Source: Bdellovibrionota bacterium (GTDB lineage Bacteria > Bdellovibrionota > Bdellovibrionia > Bdellovibrionales > JAMPXM01). Taken from it: DNA of 64,000 nt. Position 1 is the first letter of the stretch. Each line of letters starts with the position of its first letter. The position numbers were made by a program, and so were the translations under genes. Shown here piece after piece: positions 2 to 14,473 of the stretch. Below the pieces are notes generated by a model. The model searched no databases, was not told the DNA's origin, and was given only the letters and a program-made list of their open reading frames with translations. Location of the stretch: assembly GCA_963170185.1 (NCBI GenBank), contig CAUJGS010000036.1:1-64000 (forward strand), in the 5' to 3' direction.

Positions 2-1948
2 CCTCTGATTGCCGAAGGTATCGTTCAATCGAAAGTCGGCTACGAAGAAGGACTTAAGAAAGTCGTAAAAGAACTCATTCTCCACGAGTTCGGTCACTTC
101 TTGGGCCTTGGTCACCAATTCAAAGAAAACATCTTGCCGGCAAAAGGTTCGGTTCCAAGCAAGTATGTTTCCGAGCTCGAAAAGCGCGCGGCCAACGGTA
201 TGACCAACGCCACTTCGGTCATGGGCTACCGCCACCCTGTTACGGAACTTCTAACACCTTACGAGGATATCGCTCCAGGACACCAAGACGAGCTGACTCT
301 TCGTTATCTCTACAACATGGAATATCCGACGTTCCGTAAAAACAGCGACGATCAGGATTTCAAATTCGCTAAGCTTCCTGCAAGCGGATTGATCCCAGAC
401 CGTGATCCAAAGAACCCGGAGTTCGAAACATCGTACTTCCCGCAGTGTAACGACTTCCACGCTTCGTTCTCGGCAGATCCATACTGCAATCGTTTCGATC
501 GTGGTTTCGACGCTGACACCATCGTCTCTAGCTACTTTGATGACTTGAACGTCAATAAAGTTTCGCGCATCCACGCCTTCACGGACGCTCGCGGCTATGA
601 CCCTGACTACGCGGAAGGCGCATTGTGGTACACATCGCTACGTTCACTCGGTCGCGTTCGTATCTTCTACGATTACATGCGCCAGAAGTTCGAATCGGAA
701 ATCCGTACGATCTCGCAAAGCAAGCGTGACCTCGACGAATTCTCGCGTGTCTGCCGCGGTGAAATTCAAGGCAGCGCCACGCTGGAAGGAATCTTCCAAC
801 GCAAACCGGAGCTCAAAGAGCTCTGCCGCGTGAACCACAAAGCTGTTCAAGAGATCACGAACCTCTTAAACACGCCCGGACCAGATCGCACGCGCATGAA
901 TTGGGACAATGCTTCGATCTCCGCTCAAGTTATTGGCGGCGATGGCGGCACTGACTACTCGTCGGTATTCGGAACTTATTCGACACTTTCTGTGTTCCCT
1001 CTTAAAATCGCGGCCGTGAACGCGCTGACGACTCCGTATCCGTACACGATGCTGGGTGGCTGGATGTTCCCGATCCCGCGCTTCACGGGCCAAGACGGGC
1101 TCTTCTCTTACTCGACGCTTTACTCGCGTGAGTTCACGAGCGCTCTAGCTTCGGCTCTTGAAAAGAACCTGAAGACCGAGCCGAAGAAAGGCGAATCGGC
1201 ATCGATCGGCCTTCCAGTTCTTTCTTTGGGTTACTTCTTGGATCAACAAGCCATGGGTAACGACGCGATCCGCTTGCCTAAAGACTTCGTCGAAAGTCTT
1301 CGCAACCAATCGCAATTCCGTCTTTCGGTAAAAGCCATCATCATGGAAATGCAAAACCGTGGCGATTCGACTCGTGTGACCCAGCTAGTTGGTACGCTGT
1401 TTGACCCATACAGCAACAAGGCTTCGTCCTTGAACCAAGTATTCCTCTTGCCAGGAGGCAAGGTCATCGCACGCGGCCAAAGCCGCAACTTCATCTATCC
1501 GATCTCGAAACAGCCGATCTTCCTCGATAACAAGACGGCTTATGTTTGGGCCTATCACATTGAGTACGACAAGGCTTACGACGACGTCCTTGCCGCGCAC
1601 AGTGTGAAGACGAAGCTCGAAGACATGCACAAGTCGGCGGTGGACGCTTGTATCCGCGGCGACAATGACGGTCTTGAAAGCTTCTTCTCGAGTCAGGAAG
1701 CGAAGTTCGAAGGGTTCTTCGTTATGGATGGCATCGCATCCGACCCGACGAAGCAGATCAAGTTCCTGGAATCGGTGAACGAGAACTTCCAGACGTACTA
1801 CAAGCTTCGCACGACGGCTGACGGCAAAGGCCCAAGCCAAGAGCGCTGTGAACGAGCTCTCGATGGCGTCGGTGTTATCGTGTCGGCCGCGGCTCTCTTA
1901 AACGGCTACTGGCTACCAGAAGTCCTCGATCAATTGGCGACGAAGTAA
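2..1948 (+). CDS. Metzincin-type zinc metalloprotease, 5' end outside window
   Basis: The reading frame is open from base 2, so the true start lies upstream; 648 residues are visible. The frame carries HEFGHFLGLGH (83-115), a perfect HExxHxxGxxH zinc site, and about 34 residues later SVMGY (215-229), the Met-turn that metzincin proteases place under the metal. Together these make a zinc endopeptidase very likely. The roughly 570 residues after the Met-turn match no domain I recognise. The lost N-terminus probably held a signal peptide, as the downstream partners are lipoproteins and an outer-membrane barrel. The TTG at 101 lies inside the zinc motif and cannot be the start. The next gene begins 13 bases after the stop, so these genes are probably co-transcribed. 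Confidence 0.85.
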   Translation, partial: PLIAEGIVQSKVGYEEGLKKVVKELILHEFGHFLGLGHQFKENILPAKGSVPSKYVSELEKRAANGMTNATSVMGYRHPVTELLTPYEDIAPGHQDELTLRYLYNMEYPTFRKNSDDQDFKFAKLPASGLIPDRDPKNPEFETSYFPQCNDFHASFSADPYCNRFDRGFDADTIVSSYFDDLNVNKVSRIHAFTDARGYDPDYAEGALWYTSLRSLGRVRIFYDYMRQKFESEIRTISQSKRDLDEFSRVCRGEIQGSATLEGIFQRKPELKELCRVNHKAVQEITNLLNTPGPDRTRMNWDNASISAQVIGGDGGTDYSSVFGTYSTLSVFPLKIAAVNALTTPYPYTMLGGWMFPIPRFTGQDGLFSYSTLYSREFTSALASALEKNLKTEPKKGESASIGLPVLSLGYFLDQQAMGNDAIRLPKDFVESLRNQSQFRLSVKAIIMEMQNRGDSTRVTQLVGTLFDPYSNKASSLNQVFLLPGGKVIARGQSRNFIYPISKQPIFLDNKTAYVWAYHIEYDKAYDDVLAAHSVKTKLEDMHKSAVDACIRGDNDGLESFFSSQEAKFEGFFVMDGIASDPTKQIKFLESVNENFQTYYKLRTTADGKGPSQERCERALDGVGVIVSAAALLNGYWLPEVLDQLATK

Positions 1949-1961
1949 CAGGAGCAGACTG

Positions 1962-4900
1962 ATGAAAAACATGAAGACACTCCTAGTGACATCGGTGCTC
2001 CTGACCTCGACGGTCATGGCCTGCACGAAACGCGAAGTCCCTGTGACCCAGCACGAAGGCCCTCGCCGCTCGGACGAGGTCATCTTTGCGCCGGCTTCGG
2101 AAAAGATCGACGTCGAAGCTCTGAAGGCGGTCAACGCATCGTCGTTGAATGCGAAGCTTTCCAATGCGGGCAACGGCGACAAACTAAACGCTCTCAAAGC
2201 ACTTGCGCCGTTCGTTTTAGACCGTGCCTATGTCGAAAACGAGCGCGTGACGTCGTCTAGACAGATGCGCGAAGCTCTTTCCGTCTTCCTGCGAGCGCTT
2301 GTCGGCGACTCGAAGGCCGAAGGCCTAGCTCAGCAAGACCCCAAAGCGGCAGCCGAGTGGATCGAGCGCACACGAGTCGTCATCGAGTCCGGTTGCGATG
2401 GCACCGGCAAAGGATGCTCAAAATCAATCCTCCGATTTTTCAAGCAGGACATTGGCTCATCTAAAGTCATGGAAGTTTCCGCCCGTGAAGTAGAAGTCGA
2501 ACTCGACCGCCTGACAAAGGCCCGTTCGAACTCTTCGGAACTGAAAGCGGATACACAGAAGCTTCAAAACGACCTGGTACGCACTTACTACCGTCGCTTG
2601 AAGATGGCTTATGAACTCAAAAACCAAACGATGGACCGTGAACTTGAGTTCTTGTATCTTTCGCGCGCTTCGCAATATGCCGAGGCCTTCAACACAGAAA
2701 ACCCTTCGACTCGCGAACGCGAACTTCTCGCTCAGCATATCGAAGTTTTCGAAACTATCTTGGCCGGCTTCAATCCCGATCTTTCAAACCCCGCGTTCCG
2801 CGAGCGTTTTGAAAAGTTCGTGAACAACTTCGGGCCTTGGCGCTATTCGCGCCGTGGCGACAACCCGTTTGGCCGTGCTTCGACTCGCATGCTTTCGCTA
2901 GCGGCAAGCAATTTCCTATACACGGATGGCAAGCTTTCGTCTTCATTGGCGACAGCGATCCGCGAATCTCAGGAAGTGCCTCAGGCGCCAGCTGGAACAG
3001 CGCAAGACGCTTTCGAGCAAAAGGCTTTTGACAGCCTCGACAGTTCGTTTGCCGTGATCGTGAAACACATTCGCGAAAAACAGCCCGCGATCTGGAAAAA
3101 CCTCGGCCTTAACGACTCGTTCAAGCGCGACGAATACTTCTTCATCGTGGACCGTATTTTCGGTGATCACCTAACTATTGAAGACGCCAGCGAAGTATGG
3201 CGCGGAACATCGCGCGACTCCAAGGCGCTGCTTCAGGTCGCCGAACAATATGTGAAGATTCAAATCGCGGCGCAAACCGTTCGTACGAACAAGTATATGG
3301 CGGGCATTTATTCGAACCGCGAGTGGTCTTCGACGACTCTCCTCGAAAAGGCCATCGAGCAATCTTACCCTGTTCAAACTCAGTGGAACCAGCTTCTCGG
3401 CCGTATCGAGCGCATCCATCTCTTCTTGGATCGCAGCTTGAAATCGACAGAAGATATCTGGGGAGCTTCGGACTTCAGCAAAGTCGACAAGATGTTCTCT
3501 AGCATCCGTCGCAACATCAAATATCTTTCGGTTTATCCGAACATGATGATGATGGCCTACTATATGGCGGAATCGAAGTTTAAACTTTCGATCTATACGT
3601 TCTTTGGAAAGTTCGACATCGACACAGGTCGTATCATCGGATGGTTCTTTGATGGAAAACTGGCTCCGTTCTTTAACTTCGGAAACGACGGAAATGAACT
3701 CAAGCGCATCGAGACGCTCTATGCGTTCCTCTTTGCTCTAAAGACGGACACCTTTGCTTCGTTCTCGGCATCTCGGGGCGAACGCATCGATGTTGTTAAG
3801 TTCTTTGACGCGGTCATCACGAAGTTCTTGGATGAAGACCGTATCGAGCTTTCGAACGCCATCGACAACATTCGTTCGGAAACTCGCAAGAACAACATGG
3901 AGACGTTCCTTAAGACCTGCGAACAAGATCGTGATCTCATCAATCGCGGCCTAAAACCAGGTTCGGCGGGCGCTCGCCTTCCGATGGATCTCTGGGCTTT
4001 CAAGTTCAGCACATACGTAGGAACAACGGCGTCCGGAGGCCATGGCCAAGCGGCACTTCAGTTCCACAACGAACGCCGCGCGGAAGCGATTCGCAACCTC
4101 AACTCGTCGCTTCGCGCAAAACTCGAGTTCGTTCAAATCATGACTGGCCTTCTGGAAGAGCACATGCGCAAAACCGGAACGACGCAAGCCGAGATCGACC
4201 GTATCCGCGAGCAGATTCGCGGATACACGGCGCGCGTTAGCCAGCTTCGAGCGGAATTCCTGACGGAAATCACTCGGTGGAACCGTACGCTTTCCAACTG
4301 TATTGACCAGGCCGTTCGTGTTGAAATCGACCGCCAGGGCGAACTCTTGGAACTCGAAGAGCGTCATCTTCGTCACGTATGGACGAAGATCAAAGAAGCT
4401 CGTGCATCGCAAAACAAAGAGACGATTCTTGCGAATCTCAACAAAGAGATCGTGAGCTCGACCGGCGCTGCAGGGGTCTCGACTTCGAAACCTTATGTTC
4501 CAAAGAGCAGCGCTACCGAAGACAATTACGTCTATGCGGATCTCGATGTCACTCTTCGCATGATTCAACATTTGAAAAAAGTGGCGCCAAACGTCGACGT
4601 GATTATGCCTTCTGATCTTTCGGATTCCTCGCTTTGGAAATCGGAAAACCGTCGAGTAATTCCGTACTCGAGCTCGGAAGACGAGTTTGTACGCGCTGGC
4701 ATGAAGAACTTCGACGAAAGCACGTCGACGATCATGTCGTGGTTAAACAACACGAACGATCCATCGACGTTCATCAATCGCCTGAAGGTCAACACCGAGC
4801 TCTATAAGCTTGGTCGCTTCAAAGTTTTCGACGTCGCAGCGGAGTCTTGCCGTGGTCAAGACGACATCACGAAGTGCCCAATGAAAGAAGAGCAGATTTC

Positions 4901-5495
4901 GCCGGACGACCTGGTGAACCAAACTTCAACAGTCTTGCGTTTCCTTTCGATGACAGAAGGTGGAAAGGCGAAGAAGGATACTCGTATCATCGCGTTGGTC
5001 GGCGCGACATCGCGTTGGGATCGTGACAAAATTAAGAAGTTCGTCTTGGACGAAAACGGTGATCCCATCACGTTGTTTGAGTCGCTTTTCGAAGGTTTGA
5101 CTTTGGACATGACTCTTCTGGATGAAGCGAAAGACTTCAACCTCACGAATCGATCAATCGGTGAATTCCTGTTCGCCCCCGAACAAGAGTTCCGTACCAT
5201 CGTCAGCCAAGGGTTCCAACCTTCGGTCGACACGTACTTCGGCCGCGGCGAAGCGCTTTTGAAGGCGATCGAAGCTCGTGAGAAAAAAGACGGAACAAGC
5301 GGCAATGTGATCGATTACACGTATGAGATTCGCCCTTCTGGGCTCGCGAGTATTCAAATCGATCGACAAGGCACGACGCCGATCTACTTGGCTCGTCAAA
5401 AGGTAGAAGACTTTGCGACGACACGTGTTCTGTTTGATCGCGAAACAGGCGATGCATTCAAGAAATCGCAACCTGCTACGGGAGACCGCAAGTAA
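1962..5495 (+). CDS. Very large lipoprotein of unknown function (paralogue of 6442-9825)
   Basis: A 1177-residue protein with a lipoprotein signal: hydrophobic core followed by TVMAC, lipidated Cys at position 21. Residue +2 is Thr, not Asp, which suggests outer-membrane sorting under the E. coli rule. An AGGAG ribosome site sits about 9 bases before the ATG. The body is mostly charged and helical. Near residue 516 it contains RRNIKYLSVYP, then GWFFDGKLAPFF, which recur in the second large lipoprotein (RNIKLTSTYP, EWFFNGELAPW). Residues about 740-830 look like a coiled coil. No catalytic motif was recognised. The stop overlaps the next start (TAATG), so translation is probably coupled to the barrel gene. 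Function unknown; surface or periplasmic scaffold is inference. Confidence 0.9.
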   Translation: MKNMKTLLVTSVLLTSTVMACTKREVPVTQHEGPRRSDEVIFAPASEKIDVEALKAVNASSLNAKLSNAGNGDKLNALKALAPFVLDRAYVENERVTSSRQMREALSVFLRALVGDSKAEGLAQQDPKAAAEWIERTRVVIESGCDGTGKGCSKSILRFFKQDIGSSKVMEVSAREVEVELDRLTKARSNSSELKADTQKLQNDLVRTYYRRLKMAYELKNQTMDRELEFLYLSRASQYAEAFNTENPSTRERELLAQHIEVFETILAGFNPDLSNPAFRERFEKFVNNFGPWRYSRRGDNPFGRASTRMLSLAASNFLYTDGKLSSSLATAIRESQEVPQAPAGTAQDAFEQKAFDSLDSSFAVIVKHIREKQPAIWKNLGLNDSFKRDEYFFIVDRIFGDHLTIEDASEVWRGTSRDSKALLQVAEQYVKIQIAAQTVRTNKYMAGIYSNREWSSTTLLEKAIEQSYPVQTQWNQLLGRIERIHLFLDRSLKSTEDIWGASDFSKVDKMFSSIRRNIKYLSVYPNMMMMAYYMAESKFKLSIYTFFGKFDIDTGRIIGWFFDGKLAPFFNFGNDGNELKRIETLYAFLFALKTDTFASFSASRGERIDVVKFFDAVITKFLDEDRIELSNAIDNIRSETRKNNMETFLKTCEQDRDLINRGLKPGSAGARLPMDLWAFKFSTYVGTTASGGHGQAALQFHNERRAEAIRNLNSSLRAKLEFVQIMTGLLEEHMRKTGTTQAEIDRIREQIRGYTARVSQLRAEFLTEITRWNRTLSNCIDQAVRVEIDRQGELLELEERHLRHVWTKIKEARASQNKETILANLNKEIVSSTGAAGVSTSKPYVPKSSATEDNYVYADLDVTLRMIQHLKKVAPNVDVIMPSDLSDSSLWKSENRRVIPYSSSEDEFVRAGMKNFDESTSTIMSWLNNTNDPSTFINRLKVNTELYKLGRFKVFDVAAESCRGQDDITKCPMKEEQISPDDLVNQTSTVLRFLSMTEGGKAKKDTRIIALVGATSRWDRDKIKKFVLDENGDPITLFESLFEGLTLDMTLLDEAKDFNLTNRSIGEFLFAPEQEFRTIVSQGFQPSVDTYFGRGEALLKAIEAREKKDGTSGNVIDYTYEIRPSGLASIQIDRQGTTPIYLARQKVEDFATTRVLFDRETGDAFKKSQPATGDRK

Positions 5496-6442
5496 TGCGT
5501 AAGTCGAATGCCCTTCTTATTCTGATCGCGTGCATGCTGGCCTTTAGCCACGAGGCCCTTGCTCGCTCATCGCGCAACTCGCTCACTGGTAACCCATTGG
5601 ACGAGGACAATAAGAAGGCAAAGCTTTCGACAAAAATTGCACCTACCACCGAACGTAGCCGAATCGACATCAATTCGCTGGTGTCGTACTCAGTTCGTCA
5701 AGATCTGGCACATCCGCGCGAGCCTAAATCGGCTCTGCACCGCCTGCAGGCTTCCGGTACATTGACGATCTTAGACCGCCCGGTGATCAAAGGTTTCGAC
5801 GACGAATTCGCCGAAGAGATCGTGACCCTCGCACTTGTTGTTGGCGGACAAATGACGACTATTGCAAATGAGATCGATGCCACAGGCGGAAACGGTCCAG
5901 CGGAACTCGCCGATATCGACTTTTCGGCATCTCGTTCATTTACAATGAACCCCGTCTTCGGCGCCCGCAGCTCGCTTGAAACAAGTCTCGGCGTTTCGTT
6001 GCCGACATCGCTTGCAAGCCAGTATGAAGGGTTTCATGCCGTTCCCTACGCGGCCGTAACATGGGCGATGCTCTTTCAAGGTGGCCGTTATGGACTTATG
6101 CAGACAGTGTCTGCCGATCATGTCGTCAATGAATATGAGTTCAGCCCCGTCACACGCGAAGTCAACGCTCAAGGCTCTACGGGGTATTCGATCGCGGGTA
6201 CCGTTCGCCTTGGAAGAGGCTTTCGTTTTCGTCTAGGTGGAAACGCACGAATCATTCACTATCTCGACGGCACAAACACGAGTGCGCTTTCCAACGTTCA
6301 GTCGTTGTCGTGGACCGACGGTAAACACTCGATCACCGTTTCCCACAGCAACGGATCGCGAGCGGAAGACCGCGAGACTTCGATGTGGTTTGTGGATGAG
6401 TATCGTCGAGTACTTTCACTCGCGCTTTCGGTGAGGTTCTAA
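5495..6442 (+). CDS. Predicted outer-membrane beta-barrel protein
   Basis: A 315-residue exported protein. It has an N-terminal signal peptide (hydrophobic core, cleavage probably after EALA), then a short charged segment and a C-terminal half rich in alternating hydrophobic and polar strands (GARSSLETSLGVSL, GYSIAGTVRL, RFRLGGNARI). It ends ...ALSVRF: a C-terminal Phe with alternating hydrophobics is the signature recognised by BamA. The gene overlaps the genes on both sides by one base (TAATG each time), so it is translated with the two large lipoproteins and probably forms a complex with them. GGGAGA lies before the ATG. The exact family is not recognised; strand count and channel activity cannot be judged from sequence reading alone. 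Confidence 0.8.
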   Translation: MRKSNALLILIACMLAFSHEALARSSRNSLTGNPLDEDNKKAKLSTKIAPTTERSRIDINSLVSYSVRQDLAHPREPKSALHRLQASGTLTILDRPVIKGFDDEFAEEIVTLALVVGGQMTTIANEIDATGGNGPAELADIDFSASRSFTMNPVFGARSSLETSLGVSLPTSLASQYEGFHAVPYAAVTWAMLFQGGRYGLMQTVSADHVVNEYEFSPVTREVNAQGSTGYSIAGTVRLGRGFRFRLGGNARIIHYLDGTNTSALSNVQSLSWTDGKHSITVSHSNGSRAEDRETSMWFVDEYRRVLSLALSVRF

Positions 6443-9400
6443 TGTCTCGTTTTACATTCGCCCTCACCTCAGTCCTGGTCGCGATTTCAACGTCTTTGAC
6501 GGCCTGTACGAAAGAGTCCACGACTCGCAAGGCCCATGAAGGCTCGAAAACGGAGTCGACAGACTCTCATCTCTACTTGAAAGAAACCCTGGACGGGCAC
6601 GCGTCGCTGACCGAAAGTCGCGACAAAGGCACACTGCTTGGCATTTGGCAAAAACGCCTTAGCCAATCCTCCATGGACAACGAGCTACGAAATGGTACGA
6701 GCCAAGACCGCGAATCGTTCTACAAACTGAGCCAAGACGTACTGGCCGAAGTTCAAGCAACCAAGCCAGAGGTGAACGGCAAGATCGACGAGATCCGCGA
6801 GGCATACCTTTCTGCTTTCGCCAAAGCCATGCTTGGTGGATGTGATCAAGACCTCAATGGCTGCCGATACCTGAAAATCTTCCGTCAAAATCCAACGACG
6901 ATTCCAATGATTTTGGAAGTCGTTCAGCAAAAACAAAGCGGGCTTGAACTTCGTGATCGCTACATGCTGCTCCGACTCGCACATATCTACCTCAATCAAC
7001 GAGAAAATCCCGAGCTCACTCGCCACTTCCTAACGAGCGCTGCCGAGTACGAAACTTTACTGGAAAACTCGTTGGCCGACTCGCGTGATCCACGAGACCG
7101 TAAACGCCTTGAGTCTCATCGCGAAATGATCGATCAATTGCTTTTGGATCTCGCCAGCACGACGAAAACGCCTGTTCTAGAACCCGCCGTTGTTCAGGCC
7201 CTGGCCGACAAGTTCGGCATCTGGAACTTCGACCGTCCACGCACGCAAACCAATTCGACACGCGATCGCGTTCTTCTGCAACTGACGGCACGTCGTCTCT
7301 TTGAAGGCAACGAGCTACAAACCCGTCTTGCGGAGATCGAAGCCTCGCCCGAGGCTCTTGGACGCAAACTCACACCGACAGTCGCGTCGCGTCCCAAAAT
7401 CGGTGAAAGCGTCGGACTTGCGACCAGTGTCCCCAAAACCCTCACGACTTTCCTTTTGGAAAGTCTTTGGATGAAAAAAATCACGATCGCAGAAGCCCGC
7501 GTCTTCTGGGAGAAATCGCTAGAAGGAAAGACTGAATCTGAACGTCTGGTTTTGGCTCAAACCATGAAGCGCGATCTTTTGAATTATTCGCGCGGCCGCC
7601 TCTTCGTTACGGCACAAGACGTCAACAAGATCCTGATCGACTTCTTTCAATCGTCCGGTCGATTTTCGACAGCCGACGCTTTTCAAGAAGCCTTGAAAGA
7701 ATCGGTTCGTGGACAAGTCATGTGGGCGGACGCAACAAGCCGCTTTGAAACTCTCAACACGTTCCACGACCAGAACTTCCGTGGCTATGACAACTCGGAC
7801 CAGATCACGAAGGACCTTACGTTCTTCTTTGCCGGTATTGACCGCAACATTAAGCTTACGTCGACATATCCAAGCATGCTGGTCATGTGTTATCACCTCG
7901 CCCGCCTGAAGTTCAGCTTGCGAATCATGACCTGGTTTGGAGTTTTCAAAATTGAAGCCGGTAAGATCCTTGAATGGTTCTTCAATGGAGAACTCGCGCC
8001 TTGGCTTCCTTACGGAACCGACAAACGCCCGATCTCGAAGTCGGAAATGCTTCTCGTGTTCCACTACGCAGCGGAACTCGGAGTACTAGAAGGTGGCGGC
8101 GTTAACATCGGCACACTGTTTCAAATGATGAACGAGCAAATGCTCGGTACGCTTCGCGAAGATGTTTCGAAAATCAATCGTGCTTTCCGCACAAAATTCG
8201 AAACGGCTTCGCGCGTGACAGAGTTCCGTCAAATCTGTGAGGAACAAAAACGTCGGAACGCGGCCGGTTCGAAAGTCTACGCCTCAAGCCGTATGCCGAT
8301 TGCGAACCTCGAAAACTATGCGTTGATGGGCTTCCCACAAGGCGGCGGCGGCAATCTCTTCCTCGACGAAACATTCTTCGAAGCTTGGTCGTTCTGGGAA
8401 ACGGAACGCGACATCACGCTTATGCGTCTCGACGACAACCTCGAAACAATCCGTCTCGAGCTTTCGCCCAAAATCGAAATGTTCGAGCTCTATCGCGACA
8501 TCGCAAAGGCCCATCTTGAGCGTCATTCGGTCTCAACGCGCGAGGCGAGCCTTGCGGCGATCAATGCTCAAATCCAACCACTTAAGGATTTGCGCAAAGA
8601 AACATACAGCCGCATCTTCCGCATTCACAACTCACTCTCGGACTGCAGTGAAAACTTCCTGCGCGGAGAAATCGAGGCCGAGGCCCATGTCATCCGTGGC
8701 CTTATGGCCCATTTCCGCAGTGTCCACCGCGCGATGACAGCACGTCGAAATGCGGGAACAGCCGGTATCTCTCGTGAATTCGGATTCAGCGGCAAATACA
8801 ATATCGATGACCTCGATCAACACGAGCGTTTGCTTGGTTACACGCAGGAAAGCTACCGCCTTTCACGTGTTCAGGCCTTGCTCTTGGTCACGGATATCCT
8901 TCAGAATGGGTATCGCGACGGCAGCCGCGTCGTCGGCCCGATCCGCGATAAAAACTCGATCATCATTCCCGACCGAGTTCAGAACTTTACCCAAAGCTTG
9001 CGCGAAAAAGAACTCAACATGCCTTGGCGCGAAAGCGAGTCCGAGTTTGTCGACCATGGGATTCAGTTGATCTTCAACCATCGCGACCACGTGCTTTCTT
9101 GGGCCGATCGCTCGAATCGTCAGATCGCATTCATGATGCGTATCGAGTCCCTCGTGGCGTTCGCCAAAGCAGGACCGCAGGAAACCACCGAAGGTGTTCA
9201 GCAGTTCAAGGTGCAGGACCTCTTGAAGTCACACCTCACTATGCTGAAGGCACTGGAAGTCGACGAGGCGATGGCGTATGTATTGAACACGACAGCTCGT
9301 TTCCGCATCCCCTACCTCGAGCAGGTTTTGGATGACTACGCTTGGACAAAGGGCAGCCGCGAATGGCTTGGCCTATTCGATTTTCTTTATCAGAAACTCG

Positions 9401-9825
9401 CGGCTGACCGTCTTGGTGACTTGGTTTCCGACGACAATCAACAGCGCCGTGGGCTATCACGCATCGGCCCTCAGCAGGAGTTTGCGCTTCACCGCACGGC
9501 TATGCGTTCGCTCGGTGAACCGGCACTGAAGATTCCTTCCGAAACTATGGAAATGCTCAATAGCTTCTATAGTCGCCGAATCGACACACAGATCGCTTAT
9601 TTGACGGAAGTCCTCAAAGAGTCACAGCGCCTTGAAACCACTCGCGCCAAGCGGCCCGAGAGCTTCCCTGCTTGGAGACTGTACACCAACCGACCAACAC
9701 CGCGAGTTCCTATCTTAGGCACTTCGCCGGTCGACCATGTGGATGGCTCGTTAAAAGAGATGGCAAGGGCCTATGGATATCAGATCCCGGCCGCCTACAA
9801 AGAGGCCGTGTCGCTATCCAAGTAG
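6442..9825 (+). CDS. Very large lipoprotein of unknown function (paralogue of 1962-5495)
   Basis: A 1127-residue protein with lipoprotein signal TSLTAC (Cys 22). It shares several blocks with the 1177-residue lipoprotein upstream: an N-terminal GGCDQDLNGCRYLK block matching SGCDGTGKGCSKS, FGIWNF matching FGPWRY, and around residue 467 RNIKLTSTYPSM followed by FGVFKIEAGKILEWFFNGELAP. Paralogy is therefore strong, although overall identity looks low, which points to an old duplication. A helical region with coiled-coil character lies around residues 680-760. GTGAGG precedes the ATG, which overlaps the barrel gene stop. No enzyme motif was seen. It is the last gene of the four-gene run; after it the strand content changes to a tRNA and a reverse-strand gene. 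Confidence 0.9.
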   Translation: MSRFTFALTSVLVAISTSLTACTKESTTRKAHEGSKTESTDSHLYLKETLDGHASLTESRDKGTLLGIWQKRLSQSSMDNELRNGTSQDRESFYKLSQDVLAEVQATKPEVNGKIDEIREAYLSAFAKAMLGGCDQDLNGCRYLKIFRQNPTTIPMILEVVQQKQSGLELRDRYMLLRLAHIYLNQRENPELTRHFLTSAAEYETLLENSLADSRDPRDRKRLESHREMIDQLLLDLASTTKTPVLEPAVVQALADKFGIWNFDRPRTQTNSTRDRVLLQLTARRLFEGNELQTRLAEIEASPEALGRKLTPTVASRPKIGESVGLATSVPKTLTTFLLESLWMKKITIAEARVFWEKSLEGKTESERLVLAQTMKRDLLNYSRGRLFVTAQDVNKILIDFFQSSGRFSTADAFQEALKESVRGQVMWADATSRFETLNTFHDQNFRGYDNSDQITKDLTFFFAGIDRNIKLTSTYPSMLVMCYHLARLKFSLRIMTWFGVFKIEAGKILEWFFNGELAPWLPYGTDKRPISKSEMLLVFHYAAELGVLEGGGVNIGTLFQMMNEQMLGTLREDVSKINRAFRTKFETASRVTEFRQICEEQKRRNAAGSKVYASSRMPIANLENYALMGFPQGGGGNLFLDETFFEAWSFWETERDITLMRLDDNLETIRLELSPKIEMFELYRDIAKAHLERHSVSTREASLAAINAQIQPLKDLRKETYSRIFRIHNSLSDCSENFLRGEIEAEAHVIRGLMAHFRSVHRAMTARRNAGTAGISREFGFSGKYNIDDLDQHERLLGYTQESYRLSRVQALLLVTDILQNGYRDGSRVVGPIRDKNSIIIPDRVQNFTQSLREKELNMPWRESESEFVDHGIQLIFNHRDHVLSWADRSNRQIAFMMRIESLVAFAKAGPQETTEGVQQFKVQDLLKSHLTMLKALEVDEAMAYVLNTTARFRIPYLEQVLDDYAWTKGSREWLGLFDFLYQKLAADRLGDLVSDDNQQRRGLSRIGPQQEFALHRTAMRSLGEPALKIPSETMEMLNSFYSRRIDTQIAYLTEVLKESQRLETTRAKRPESFPAWRLYTNRPTPRVPILGTSPVDHVDGSLKEMARAYGYQIPAAYKEAVSLSK

Positions 9826-9936
9826 TTGCAAGGAACTCACCTCGGCACGCACCACGAGTGCCGTCGTGACGTTCTAGGATCGCCTCAAAGCGCTTTACCC
9901 GGAATGAATTTATCGCTAGAAGACCTCTAGTCCATC

Positions 9937-10012
9937 GACTTCATAGCTCAACGGGATAGAGCTCTAGTTTCCTAAACTGGCGATCGAGGTTCGAGTCCTC
10001 GTGAAGTCACCA
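9937..10012 (+). tRNA. tRNA-Arg (anticodon CCT)
   Basis: A complete 76-base cloverleaf can be drawn. The acceptor stem GACTTCA pairs with TGAAGTC and is followed by A and an encoded CCA. The D stem is GCTC/GAGC; the anticodon stem CTAGT/ACTGG holds loop TTCCTAA with anticodon CCT at 9971-9973 (reads AGG); the variable loop is CGAT; the T stem is CGAGG/CCTCG around TTCGAGT. It stands alone, not in a tRNA cluster. Confidence 0.97.
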
Positions 10013-10023
10013 ACTCGCTCCGT

Positions 10024-10046
10024 ACAATAAAGCACGATACAGTGCT
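10024..10046 (-). terminator. Weak possible terminator after the superoxide dismutase gene
   Basis: Reading the minus strand, AGCAC, a six-base loop and GTGCT form a short stem, followed by TTATTGT. The stem has only five pairs, so this is tentative. Confidence 0.3.
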
Positions 10047-10077
10047 ATACCCCGCCTCACACAGACCTTGCAGTATC

Positions 10078-10773
10078 CTATCTTTCAGCGTGGTACTTGG
10101 AAACCTGCTTCCAATCGACGATCCGCCAGAAATTCGCGACGTAATCCGCACGCTTGTTTTGATAGGTGAGATAGTAAGCATGCTCCCAGACGTCGAGGGC
10201 CAAAACTGGCTTGCCCTTCACGGCGGCAATGTCCATGAGCGGATTGTCCTGATTCGCCGTTTTTGCGATCACCAGTTTTCCATCGTCGGTTTTAACCAAC
10301 CACGCCCAACCAGATCCGAACACGCCTTTGGCTTGCGTCTCGAACTCTTTTTTGAAGTTTTCGACCGAACCAAATGACTTTTCGAGATCCTTACGAAGAG
10401 CCGAGGACATTTTTGTTTTCGCCGCCTTTTCTTCGCTGTTCATCAGCGTCCAGAAAAACGAATGGTTCCAATGCCCTCCGCCGTTGTTGCGAACCGCATC
10501 CGGGTACTTGGAAACCGAACCAAGAATTTCAACCAAAGACTTGGCCTTGTCTTGCTCACCAAGAGCGGCATTCAAATTGTCAACGTACGCCTTGTGATGC
10601 TTTCCGTGATGCAGATTCATCGTCGCTTCATCGATGACCGGGGCCAGTGCGTTCGCCGCATATCCCAGCTCCGGGAGCGCAAAGGGCGATTTCGCCTTAT
10701 TCAACTCACCACGCGTCGTCGCGCACCCCAAAGACGGAGCCATTACCAACAATAGAGCCAATACTTTCAACAT
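10078..10773 (-). CDS. sodA: Superoxide dismutase (Mn type), predicted lipoprotein
   Basis: Converts superoxide to hydrogen peroxide and oxygen. Family motifs are clear: LHHGKHHKAYVDNLN with the first metal His, GGGHWNHSFFW with the second, and DVWEHAYY with the Asp and His ligands. GGGH, together with Gln in TANQDNPLM, resembles manganese rather than iron enzymes. The start is set at the ATG at 10773, giving 231 aa: it has AGAGG just upstream and begins a lipoprotein signal with APSLGC (Cys 17). Most bacterial SODs are cytoplasmic, so an anchored extracytoplasmic form is notable; it would protect the envelope from external superoxide. A longer in-frame start at 10851 lacks a signal and is less likely. 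The gene stands alone, read toward the tRNA. Confidence 0.95.
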   Translation of the reverse strand: MLKVLALLLVMAPSLGCATTRGELNKAKSPFALPELGYAANALAPVIDEATMNLHHGKHHKAYVDNLNAALGEQDKAKSLVEILGSVSKYPDAVRNNGGGHWNHSFFWTLMNSEEKAAKTKMSSALRKDLEKSFGSVENFKKEFETQAKGVFGSGWAWLVKTDDGKLVIAKTANQDNPLMDIAAVKGKPVLALDVWEHAYYLTYQNKRADYVANFWRIVDWKQVSKYHAER

Positions 10774-11063
10774 CCTTAACCTCTCCGACGAATTTTCTAA
10801 GACCCGCATTGTTTCGAGCTTCAAAGTATTGATCAAGCATATGTCGCCCAATTCACTGTACTCTGTACTCCGAATAGCCTCGACTACGTGTAAGCCCTGG
10901 AAATACGGAGCTCTTTGCCGTGAAACAGAACGCCATGTTCAGGGTCGAAATGCCTTCCAGCCATATCAAAAAGTAAATCAAAGGACCTCTCTTGAGAGAG
11001 GCTCGACTTCTAATGTACGACCTTCAGAGTTATACATCCTCACCACCTAAAAAGGGCCTTTCG

Positions 11064-11567
11064 ATGAAATCAACTTTCGTGCGTTTCTTGTCGATCTCAA
11101 TATTGGCGTTGCTTGCTACTTTACCTGCACACGCAAGCGCCCCCTCCTCTTCGTTCACCTGTGAGTCGACTCAATCGCCGACGTTTACGGCGACTGCGAC
11201 CCTCGACGACCAAGGCGTCTTGGAGCAGCTCACGATCGATATGGAAGGCGAAGTGCAAGAGCTGTATTCGCCAGCTGTTAAATCGGAGTTCGACGTCATT
11301 GCTCACTTCGCAAAAGACGCCGATGTACAAAAATACGGTCTCTTGACAGAGCTGCTTCGTCTCGCAAAACCGACGGTGGCTCCGTCGTATTTCATCGTTC
11401 ACAGCCTGACTTCGCCAGGCAAAGGCATGAACCTCGACGAAATCATGGAATACCTGATGGACGACCTTTCCGGCACATTGATCCTCGAAGCCCGCGACCA
11501 AGCTCACAACGTTCTCGGCCGCAGCATGATCGTAGGCTGGGGCGGCTATTTCGCAAATTGCCGCTAG
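11064..11567 (+). CDS. Small exported protein of unknown function
   Basis: A 167-residue protein. The ATG at 11064 begins a standard signal peptide (cleavage probably after PAHA), preceded by AAGGG. The mature part is mildly acidic with two Cys (one near the mature N-terminus, one three residues from the end), which could form a disulfide in the periplasm. No domain was recognised. The in-frame start at 10992 would put 24 non-conserved-looking residues before the signal and was not used. A weak terminator-like hairpin follows at 11577-11600. Upstream (10774-11063) is a 290-base gap between divergent genes in which I see no further gene. Confidence 0.75.
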   Translation: MKSTFVRFLSISILALLATLPAHASAPSSSFTCESTQSPTFTATATLDDQGVLEQLTIDMEGEVQELYSPAVKSEFDVIAHFAKDADVQKYGLLTELLRLAKPTVAPSYFIVHSLTSPGKGMNLDEIMEYLMDDLSGTLILEARDQAHNVLGRSMIVGWGGYFANCR

Positions 11568-12818: not shown

Positions 12819-13715
12819 CTACAGCGGTAGCACGCAAATATCTAGCGGCGGAGCAAACGGGTTATGTCGAAAGCCTCGCTGCACCAAGCTCTGGTAGATT
12901 CTCTCCAAAATATCTATGCTCACCCGGTAGTTGTCGAGTTCACGCAAGAAGCAGGCGTAGTTGTGCGCAAGTACTCCGCCATTTGGTGGATGAATTGGCA
13001 CCGTGCCGAAGACGTAAGAAGTCAAAAACCCGTAAATGCTTTTGCAAGTCTCTTCCTTCTCCGACTCCGAAAGCTCGTTGAGAAGCTTCGCTCTTCCGCA
13101 AAATGCCACCAACGCGGCCAGCTCCTCATCGATGTAAAGATCGAAGACGGAGTACACATCCTTCAAGTTAACAAGAGTCCAAAGTGCCGCTTTTCGTGCA
13201 ACCGGCGTAGGATAGTCCACGAGATCATAAATCAAAGTGGTCAGTCTCTTGCCTGGCCGAAAGAAACGAATCAGTTCTTCGATCTCACTGGAGATGGTAT
13301 ACTTGCTGTCGTCGTAGCCGAGTAAGTGAAGCGTTTCATGCAAAGCCAGCTTTTTGTATTTCTCGGGTGCCAGCACGGCTTTTTCCCAAGCTGGTCGCGA
13401 AATCACGATTCTCGGAGGCTGAGAGTACGGATAATTCAGCATCATGTACTCTTCGCCGTCTTTGAACAAAGGCGTATTGGAAACCGTCACCACCGTCTCA
13501 AACACTTTTCTTCGATAATCCTGTAAGAAAGCTGGAGTGGGGAGCAGTTCAAACGGCACTCTCTGAAGATCTCGAATCACTTCATTTTGGTAGGCCTGAA
13601 AAGCCTCATTCACCGGGTCCCCACCGTAAAATATATCGGGGCCACCCGCCGACGAGAACTGTCCGGAGAAGATCAGACTCACGGAGGCTAGAATGACTAA
13701 AAAGCGCACCTTCAT
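12819..13715 (-). CDS. Exported HExxH protein (putative zinc metalloprotease)
   Basis: A 298-residue protein. The ATG at 13715 has GAGG six bases upstream and starts a signal peptide (cleavage near FSSA). Residues 126-130 are HETLH, extended as LHETLHLLGYDD, so a gluzincin- or YbeY-like zinc site is possible; the third ligand could be Asp. The C-terminal half is helical and holds several Cys. No known peptidase family was recognised. The upstream gene is a TIGR02147 regulator whose stop lies 11 bases before the ATG; a GTG at 13727 overlapping that stop is an alternative start. Pairing of TIGR02147 genes with exported unknowns is typical of Bdellovibrio-like genomes, as I recall them. Confidence 0.8.
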   Translation of the reverse strand: MKVRFLVILASVSLIFSGQFSSAGGPDIFYGGDPVNEAFQAYQNEVIRDLQRVPFELLPTPAFLQDYRRKVFETVVTVSNTPLFKDGEEYMMLNYPYSQPPRIVISRPAWEKAVLAPEKYKKLALHETLHLLGYDDSKYTISSEIEELIRFFRPGKRLTTLIYDLVDYPTPVARKAALWTLVNLKDVYSVFDLYIDEELAALVAFCGRAKLLNELSESEKEETCKSIYGFLTSYVFGTVPIHPPNGGVLAHNYACFLRELDNYRVSIDILERIYQSLVQRGFRHNPFAPPLDICVLPL

Positions 13716-13726
13716 AAAGATCCTCA

Positions 13727-14473
13727 CTACCGTTTGATAACCGGAACGAAGTTCACATTCACCATCATCACCCGGTCTTCCGTTCCGGCGTCTTCTTGCG
13801 CAAAGCGGCCGACTTCTAAGGCAAACTCATGAATTCGTTTCTTTATTTTTTCGTAGCTGCGTTCATTGATCGAAATAAGGGCCGTCATGTGAACTCGCTC
13901 TTCCACCGGAATGCTCTCCACGCTGTCAGCCGCTTTCAAAATAAAACTCTTCGTCAGCTTCTTGTTGATATCCGTTCGTAAACGTTCATCGCGAACAAGA
14001 TAACGTTCCTGCAAACGTTTAAAATCCCCTTCCTCGGTGCGCTCTATGAGATCCAGCTGTTCCATATCCGAGATAATCGAAACAACCTCCGTCTCTGGCA
14101 GACACAATCTCTCGGCAATCAAAGCCGTATTCAAACTTCGATCGACATCGAGAAAACGAAGAATGGCGAATGTTTCCCATCGTGCAATTTTTGAAAAGGC
14201 CTGATCGTCGAGATCGGCAAAGTTGCGACCTTCTAGAACTTTGATATTGGACTCGATACACTTTTCAATCGTGCCCTCGTCGAGCCCGATTTTAGCGGCG
14301 ATATGCCTGATAAGCCTGACGTTGAGTTTGTATTTCTTACGAAGAATTTTCGAGACGAAGCTTGGCTCCATCTCTAGGAACTTTGCCAACGCCCGCAGCG
14401 AGTAACGTGAGTTCTTTTTTCGTCTTTCTTCAAAGAACTGAATCAACAAATCTTCCAAAGAATGATCCGCCAT
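13727..14473 (-). CDS. TIGR02147/DUF4423-family regulatory protein
   Basis: A 248-residue cytoplasmic protein. The N-terminus (LEDLLIQFFEERRKKN, YSLRALAKFLEMEPSFVSKILRKK) is the helix-turn-helix opening of the TIGR02147 family. It is followed by the winged-helix-like DUF4423 part (FADLDDQAFSKIARWETFAILRF, MEQLDLIERTEEGDFKR). Members occur mainly in Fibrobacter and Bdellovibrio and are assumed to be regulators; their targets are not established. Downstream, in the same transcription unit, is an exported HExxH protein, the most obvious candidate partner or target. The gap to the divergent repeat-protein gene holds a TGTGTC-C-GACACA palindrome that could be an operator. Confidence 0.85.
   Translation of the reverse strand: MADHSLEDLLIQFFEERRKKNSRYSLRALAKFLEMEPSFVSKILRKKYKLNVRLIRHIAAKIGLDEGTIEKCIESNIKVLEGRNFADLDDQAFSKIARWETFAILRFLDVDRSLNTALIAERLCLPETEVVSIISDMEQLDLIERTEEGDFKRLQERYLVRDERLRTDINKKLTKSFILKAADSVESIPVEERVHMTALISINERSYEKIKKRIHEFALEVGRFAQEDAGTEDRVMMVNVNFVPVIKR

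What the first reader, a model, noticed from the sequence alone, without database searches (positions are those of the whole stretch)
2..9825. Four-gene run of protease, two giant lipoproteins and a barrel: possible new surface system
A metzincin protease, a 1177-aa lipoprotein, a 315-aa predicted outer-membrane barrel and a 1127-aa lipoprotein are encoded in one direction with TAATG overlaps at both joints of the barrel gene. Coupled translation of two paralogous giant lipoproteins around a barrel suggests one envelope complex, with the protease acting on it or on external substrates. I recognise no described machine with this composition.
Basis: partly seen in the sequence, partly recalled or inferred. 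Interest (0 to 1): 0.75.

Follow-up and report, generated by a model that had tools for sequence, protein, structure and literature searches.

The report
Undescribed lipoprotein-protease-barrel operon of predatory bacteria
A block of genes for a zinc protease, two related giant fat-anchored proteins and an outer-membrane pore is kept together in the same order across many relatives of the predatory bacterium Bdellovibrio; it looks like one undescribed protein-cutting machine of the cell envelope, built on a simpler protease-plus-pore pair found throughout that phylum.

Summary
Genes lie at the stated coordinates, both TAATG joints are real, both giants have lipoboxes and are paralogues (E=8e-43), and the 315-aa protein folds as a 12-stranded barrel. 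The protease is cut by the contig edge; relatives show it is a ~1240-aa lipoprotein too. In 23 of 23 complete clusters from 15 Bdellovibrionota genomes, protease, lipoprotein A and lipoprotein B occur in that order and strand, a few bases apart. No isolated A or B was found, nor any relative outside the phylum. The barrel lies between A and B in 13 clusters, before the protease in one, and is missing from nine; each of those genomes carries one elsewhere. The barrel resembles FapF/COG4313 channels (fold; PT[S/N] motif at beta5-beta6) but lacks the other Fap parts. Beyond the finding, a homologous barrel sits beside nearly every large (>=949 aa) metzincin lipoprotein gene sampled (23 of 24 chosen without regard to barrels), including a second locus in this genome. 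So protease+barrel looks like the core; A and B (confident all-helical model, no PDB match) are an elaboration. Best reading: an outer-membrane lipoprotein protease complex with a dedicated barrel. Surface display and direction of transport are inferred.

The parts
2..1948 (+). C-terminal 648 aa of a metzincin lipoprotein protease (gene truncated by contig start; full length ~1210-1270 aa in the genus)
   Evidence: 86% identical to the 1267-aa protein of G004
83..115 (+). catalytic zinc motif HEFGHFLGLGH
   Evidence: HExxHxxGxxH and a Met-turn found in every cluster protease of >=1150 aa
215..229 (+). Met-turn SVMGY of the metzincin fold
1962..5495 (+). giant lipoprotein A (1177 aa; lipid Cys21; invariant Cys145, 152, 653, 780); predicted all-helical solenoid/coiled coil
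5493..5497 (+). TAATG overlap: stop of lipoprotein A, start of barrel
5495..6442 (+). 12-stranded outer-membrane barrel (315 aa), FapF/COG4313-like fold, C-terminal Phe
6002..6010 (+). PTS motif of the barrel (P170-S172) at the base of the beta5-beta6 loop, the most conserved feature of the wider barrel family
   Evidence: FapF PTG motif in PMC5557850
6440..6444 (+). TAATG overlap: stop of barrel, start of lipoprotein B
6442..9825 (+). giant lipoprotein B (1127 aa; lipid Cys22; conserved Cys134, 141, 599, 735), paralogue of A
9937..10012 (+). tRNA-Arg(CCT) that follows the cluster in this genus and in G012 (flank marker, not part of the machine)

Best explanation
The four genes are one operon for an outer-membrane lipoprotein protease machine of Bdellovibrionota. 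SHOWN: protease, A and B are co-inherited as a tightly packed unit; all three carry lipoprotein signals; A and B come from one old duplication and keep the same cysteine pairs; a 12-stranded FapF/COG4313-type barrel is always available in the same genome; the wider phylum has the same barrel family beside other large metzincin lipoproteins without A and B. INFERRED: the barrel is the dedicated outer-membrane partner (conduit or anchor) of the metzincin lipoprotein, and probably helps place it and its partners at the cell surface. A and B, tethered by lipid on either side of the barrel, form a helical scaffold that holds the protease and its protein substrates. The active metzincin then cleaves external (for example prey or other environmental) proteins. 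The 0.4 is for this whole picture; that the genes form one functional unit is about 0.9, and outer-membrane location about 0.8.
For: Synteny in 23 of 23 complete clusters, 15 genomes. Gaps mostly within about 20 nt or overlapping. A and B fall on nearly separate sides of one tree, 3 label changes against 18 in shuffles. Cys21/145/152/653/780 invariant in 29 of 29 A; their equivalents in at least 26 of 27 B. Catalytic motif intact. Barrel model with 12 strands, best PDB matches FapF and COG4313 channel, E 2.4e-8 and 1.3e-7; PT[SN] at the beta5-beta6 base as in FapF. Genomes with barrel-less clusters (G029, G036, G035, G154, G158) each hold a barrel elsewhere; G029 has one orphan barrel for four clusters. 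Metzincin-barrel pairing in 23 of 24 large metzincins chosen without regard to barrels, 0 of 4 small ones. As the lipoprotein protease is the only other member of the two-gene module, it is the natural client or partner of the barrel.
Against: No experiment, no interface model and no evidence on which leaflet the lipoproteins occupy. TM-scores to FapF are modest (0.46-0.56 by query length) and sequence evidence for the FapF/COG4313 family is weak (1 of 41 barrels hits PF13557, E=2.6e-4). A shared barrel in G029 argues against a barrel that is a stoichiometric part of every complex. Nearly all relatives appear to be metagenome assemblies, so predatory lifestyle is assumed.
Confidence: 0.4

Rival explanations
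1. Nutrient-capture system working like SusCD: the surface protease and giant lipoproteins cut and hold proteins, and the barrel (COG4313 channels are importers) takes up the peptides.
For: Second-best fold match is the COG4313 importer; several divergent cluster copies per genome (four in G029, three in G154) resemble substrate-specialised loci; predators live on protein.
Against: No TonB-type barrel or SusD-like fold; a single barrel for four clusters in G029 is a poor fit for substrate-specific import, though a general channel could still do it.
Confidence: 0.25
2. Secretion/maturation system working like Fap: a periplasm-facing protease processes a substrate (or the barrel) so that the FapF-like pore can export it; A and B are chaperones or substrates.
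For: FapF is the top fold match, the PTG-like motif sits at the same place, and Fap secretion needs its own protease FapD (PMC5557850).
Against: No exported third-party substrate in the operon; the protease is a metzincin, not C39; no coiled-coil/plug domain, only ~28 disordered residues before the barrel.
Confidence: 0.2
3. Envelope quality-control or remodelling protease working like BepA: the lipoprotein metzincin trims or degrades outer-membrane proteins, with the barrel as substrate or platform.
For: Lipoprotein protease genes next to a barrel gene are almost universal among the large metzincins sampled.
Against: A and B are dispensable, patchy (17 of 291 sampled genomes) and duplicated, unlike housekeeping; BepA is an M48 protease (PMC7950410).
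Confidence: 0.1
4. Coincidental neighbours kept together by operon drift, without joint function.
For: In the window's own family the cluster sits at one conserved place, next to tRNA-Arg(CCT), so part of the synteny there is simple inheritance.
Against: Same order in five further families with unrelated flanks and 15-25% protein identity; no isolated A or B.
Confidence: 0.03

Closest known systems
Pseudomonas Fap system (FapF pore + FapD protease), PMC5557850
   Same: 12-stranded barrel fold; PT-motif at the base of beta5-beta6; an operon-encoded protease
   Different: metzincin lipoprotein instead of periplasmic C39 protease; no coiled-coil/plug domain; no amyloid subunits; two giant helical lipoproteins
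COG4313 outer-membrane channels (PF13557 Phenol_MetA_deg; 4rl8)
   Same: barrel fold and PT-motif region
   Different: no lipoprotein protease partner described; 1 of 41 barrels hits the family, weakly
DUF4953 Met-zincin proteases (PF16313)
   Same: HExxHxxGxxH and Met-turn; profile match E up to 1.4e-11 in cluster proteases
   Different: ~1190-1450 aa with long extra regions and a cluster-specific conserved N-terminal half; operon partners
SusCD / surface lipoprotein-barrel nutrient systems of Bacteroidota
   Same: large lipoproteins encoded with a barrel, several copies per genome
   Different: no TonB-dependent barrel, no SusD fold
Slam surface-lipoprotein translocators
   Same: barrel encoded beside the lipoprotein it might display (analogy from memory)
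   Different: no Slam family match; no N-terminal TPR domain

Membership tests
Metzincin clan / DUF4953 Met-zincin (PF16313) | HExxHxxGxxH zinc motif and Met-turn | tested here: met
   window 83-115 and 215-229; every cluster protease >=1150 aa
Metzincin clan / DUF4953 Met-zincin (PF16313) | match above the Pfam cut-off of 24.2 bits | tested here: inconclusive
   window fragment 16 bits, below the cut-off; all 14 cluster proteases match at E<=0.1, best 1.4e-11
Fap amyloid secretion system | 12-stranded barrel pore | tested here: met
   AF2 model with 12 strands; FapF is the best PDB match
Fap amyloid secretion system | PTG motif at the base of beta5-beta6 | tested here: met
   as PT[SN]; P conserved in at least 90% of 41 barrels
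Fap amyloid secretion system | N-terminal coiled coil and helical plug on the barrel | tested here: not met
   28 disordered residues precede strand 1; some members have longer low-complexity leaders (L131, 404 aa)
Fap amyloid secretion system | C39 peptidase FapD and amyloid subunits FapB/C in the operon | tested here: not met
   gene maps of all clusters
SusCD | TonB-dependent 22-stranded barrel with plug; SusD-fold lipoprotein | tested here: not met
   12 strands; no Pfam match and no PDB fold match for A
Slam | Slam barrel family with N-terminal TPR domain | tested here: not met
   no Pfam match, no N-terminal domain
Known anti-phage defence systems | PADLOC model match | tested here: not met
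   no hit for any of the four proteins
Surface-exposed lipoprotein complex | outer-leaflet location and physical association of the parts | not testable with these tools
   only single-chain structure prediction was available

The most novel reading that the evidence does not exclude
Bdellovibrionota have their own class of surface-proteolysis apparatus. A FapF-like barrel is the dedicated translocator for metzincin lipoproteins across the phylum, and in the elaborated form it also displays two giant helical lipoproteins that act as the substrate-handling arms, used on prey or environmental protein.
Probability: 0.3. Interest if true: 0.85.

Novelty: categorically new. Interest (0 to 1): 0.66.

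Why it matters
Predatory bacteria must cut through or digest other cells, yet few of their proteolytic machines are defined. This gives a named, testable unit: a phylum-wide protease-barrel pair with a four-gene elaboration whose two giant lipoproteins match no known family or solved fold. If the barrel places the protease on the surface, it would be a new route of lipoprotein display; if it imports peptides, a new feeding system. Both can be tested, because the simpler pair also appears in complete, single-contig genomes of the same order.

Tried and rejected
Pfam, NCBIfam, PADLOC and PDB sequence searches for A and B: nothing. Fold search of A against PDB and viral models: only generic helical proteins, TM<=0.16 by query length, so no function borrowed. 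Plasmid and phage origin: no match for A in plasmids or B in phages. Papers: none describes such a cluster; the recent Bdellovibrio predation proteome deals with serine and other proteases. N-terminal half of the window's protease on another contig: not found. A shared 'Cys...HE' tether after the lipid Cys in A and B (13 of 32 against 2 of 102 other lipoproteins) is suggestive only. Weak lipoprotein-A hits in G221 and G058 were inspected and dropped as chance.

Full report
WHAT IS THERE. The window begins at base 1 of contig C36. Four + strand genes follow: a 648-aa open-ended protease (2-1948), lipoprotein A (1962-5495), a barrel (5495-6442) and lipoprotein B (6442-9825). Both barrel joints are TAATG. 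The protease fragment has HEFGHFLGLGH and SVMGY. Full-length orthologues (1208-1267 aa in the genus) begin with a lipobox, so the protease is a lipoprotein too. A and B are paralogues (E=8e-43).

CONSERVATION. A search of 60 relatives with A found matches in 14 genomes; one is a weak chance hit (G058). A profile search of 291 genomes of the phylum found 18, one of them a weak N-terminal hit. A scan of one genome for each of 84,980 species with the protease profile gave 26 loci, all in records titled Bdellovibrionales, Bdellovibrionaceae, Bdellovibrio, Bdellovibrionia or Oligoflexia. That scan used two short peptide patterns, so distant relatives elsewhere could be missed. Mapping with profiles gives 23 clusters complete from protease to B, in 15 genomes. 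All 23 have protease, A and B in that order on one strand. The barrel is between A and B in 13, before the protease in one (G024 C13), and absent from nine (four in G029, two in G036, one each in G035, G158 and G154). Neighbouring genes overlap or lie a few bases apart (some large overlaps there come from over-long start choices). No isolated A or B was found.

BARREL IN TRANS. Each of the five genomes with barrel-less clusters has a cluster-type barrel elsewhere. G029 and G036 have one orphan barrel gene (404-aa frame); G035, G154 and G158 have one in another cluster. So the system seems to need a barrel, but not one per cluster.

THE WIDER MODULE. The protease profile also hits many other metzincins in the phylum (207 of 291 genomes). 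Neighbourhoods were read for 28 large ones (>=949 aa); 27 have a same-strand barrel homologue within two genes. Four of these loci were fetched because of a barrel hit; leaving them out, the count is 23 of 24. The barrel profile was built partly from such neighbours. Six neighbours never used for building still match (E 2e-47, 4e-27, 2e-22, 2e-17, 3e-6 and 0.003; the last two weak). None of four small metzincins (860-894 aa) has a barrel. The sample includes genomes of genus g20 assembled in one or a few contigs (L136-L138), which I take for Bdellovibrio-like but cannot name. This genome has its own second pair: a 1402-aa metzincin after a 315-aa barrel (L154).

STRUCTURES. The barrel (11 sequences; pLDDT 80.5, pTM 0.72) has 12 strands. 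The best PDB matches are FapF (E 2.4e-8) and the COG4313 channel (1.3e-7). Its most conserved feature, PT[SN], lies directly after strand 5, where FapF has a PTG motif at the base of beta5-beta6 (PMC5557850). By sequence the link is weak: 1 of 41 barrels matches PF13557. Lipoprotein A (22 sequences; pLDDT 86.0, pTM 0.72) is nearly all helical, with very long helices, one of 74 residues. No solved structure resembles it overall (TM<=0.16). Four cysteines besides the lipid one are invariant in A and nearly so in B, which points to disulfides and hence an oxidising compartment (inference).

EVOLUTION. In a tree of 53 A and B sequences the two labels need 3 changes against 18 in shuffles: essentially one old duplication, with some long-branch rows unsure. 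In this genus and G012 (another genus of the family) the cluster ends beside tRNA-Arg(CCT). The four same-genus relatives have a fifth gene, a small single-membrane-span protein that overlaps the protease start (by 4 nt in three of them); in this genome that place is off the contig.

INTERPRETATION. The unit is shown by synteny; the mechanism is inferred. The simplest reading of the two-gene form is that the barrel's partner is the lipoprotein protease itself, and that A and B were added later as a scaffold or substrate-handling pair. Whether the barrel displays, exports, imports or anchors cannot be decided here, hence 0.4 for the preferred picture. 'Categorically new' refers to the system: the protease superfamily and barrel fold are known, the giant lipoproteins and the combination are not.

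LIMITS. Nearly all relatives appear to be metagenome assemblies; expression, location and complex formation are untested; no multimer prediction was available; subscription papers and preprints were not searched.

Noticed in passing
L154 (G000:C41:33000-51000), 6189-7136 and 7198-11406: A second barrel + large metzincin lipoprotein pair (315 and 1402 aa) in the window's own genome, without giant lipoproteins.
   Followed up: partly
L035 14688-15077; L036 14285-14653; L038 8266-8613; L054 6259-6516: Genus-specific small protein with one membrane span (WLLLLF..FFGIAAEEA) whose gene overlaps the protease start by 4 nt in L035, L036 and L054; off-contig in the window.
   Followed up: partly
window 9937-10012; same tRNA in L035, L036, L037, L039: tRNA-Arg(CCT) directly downstream of lipoprotein B in five genomes of the family: a fixed location, possibly an old integration site.
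   Followed up: partly
L131 8171-9385 (G029) and G036:C197:7101-7904: Orphan barrels in genomes whose several clusters lack a barrel; the one in L131 is 404 aa with a lysine-rich leader.
   Followed up: partly
window 2022-2057 and 6505-6540 and equivalents: A and B share a Cys-x(~8-10)-H-E stretch after the lipid Cys (13 of 32 A/B, 2 of 102 other lipoproteins): possible sorting signal.
   Followed up: partly
L134 355-2760 (G249:C107): 801-aa lipoprotein of no Pfam family directly upstream of a metzincin-barrel pair: perhaps another add-on partner.
   Followed up: no
L155, L167, L168, L173: A separate class of 860-894 aa DUF4953-type lipoprotein metzincins without barrel neighbours.
   Followed up: partly
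window 10078-10851 (-): Looks like an iron/manganese superoxide dismutase with a lipoprotein-type signal (by eye only).
   Followed up: no
window 12819-14473 (-): Overlapping pair: a helix-turn-helix gene resembling the TIGR02147 group (by eye) and a 302-aa secreted protein.
   Followed up: no
L038 4555-8390 (G002): Protease gene split into two overlapping frames: frameshift or assembly error.
   Followed up: no
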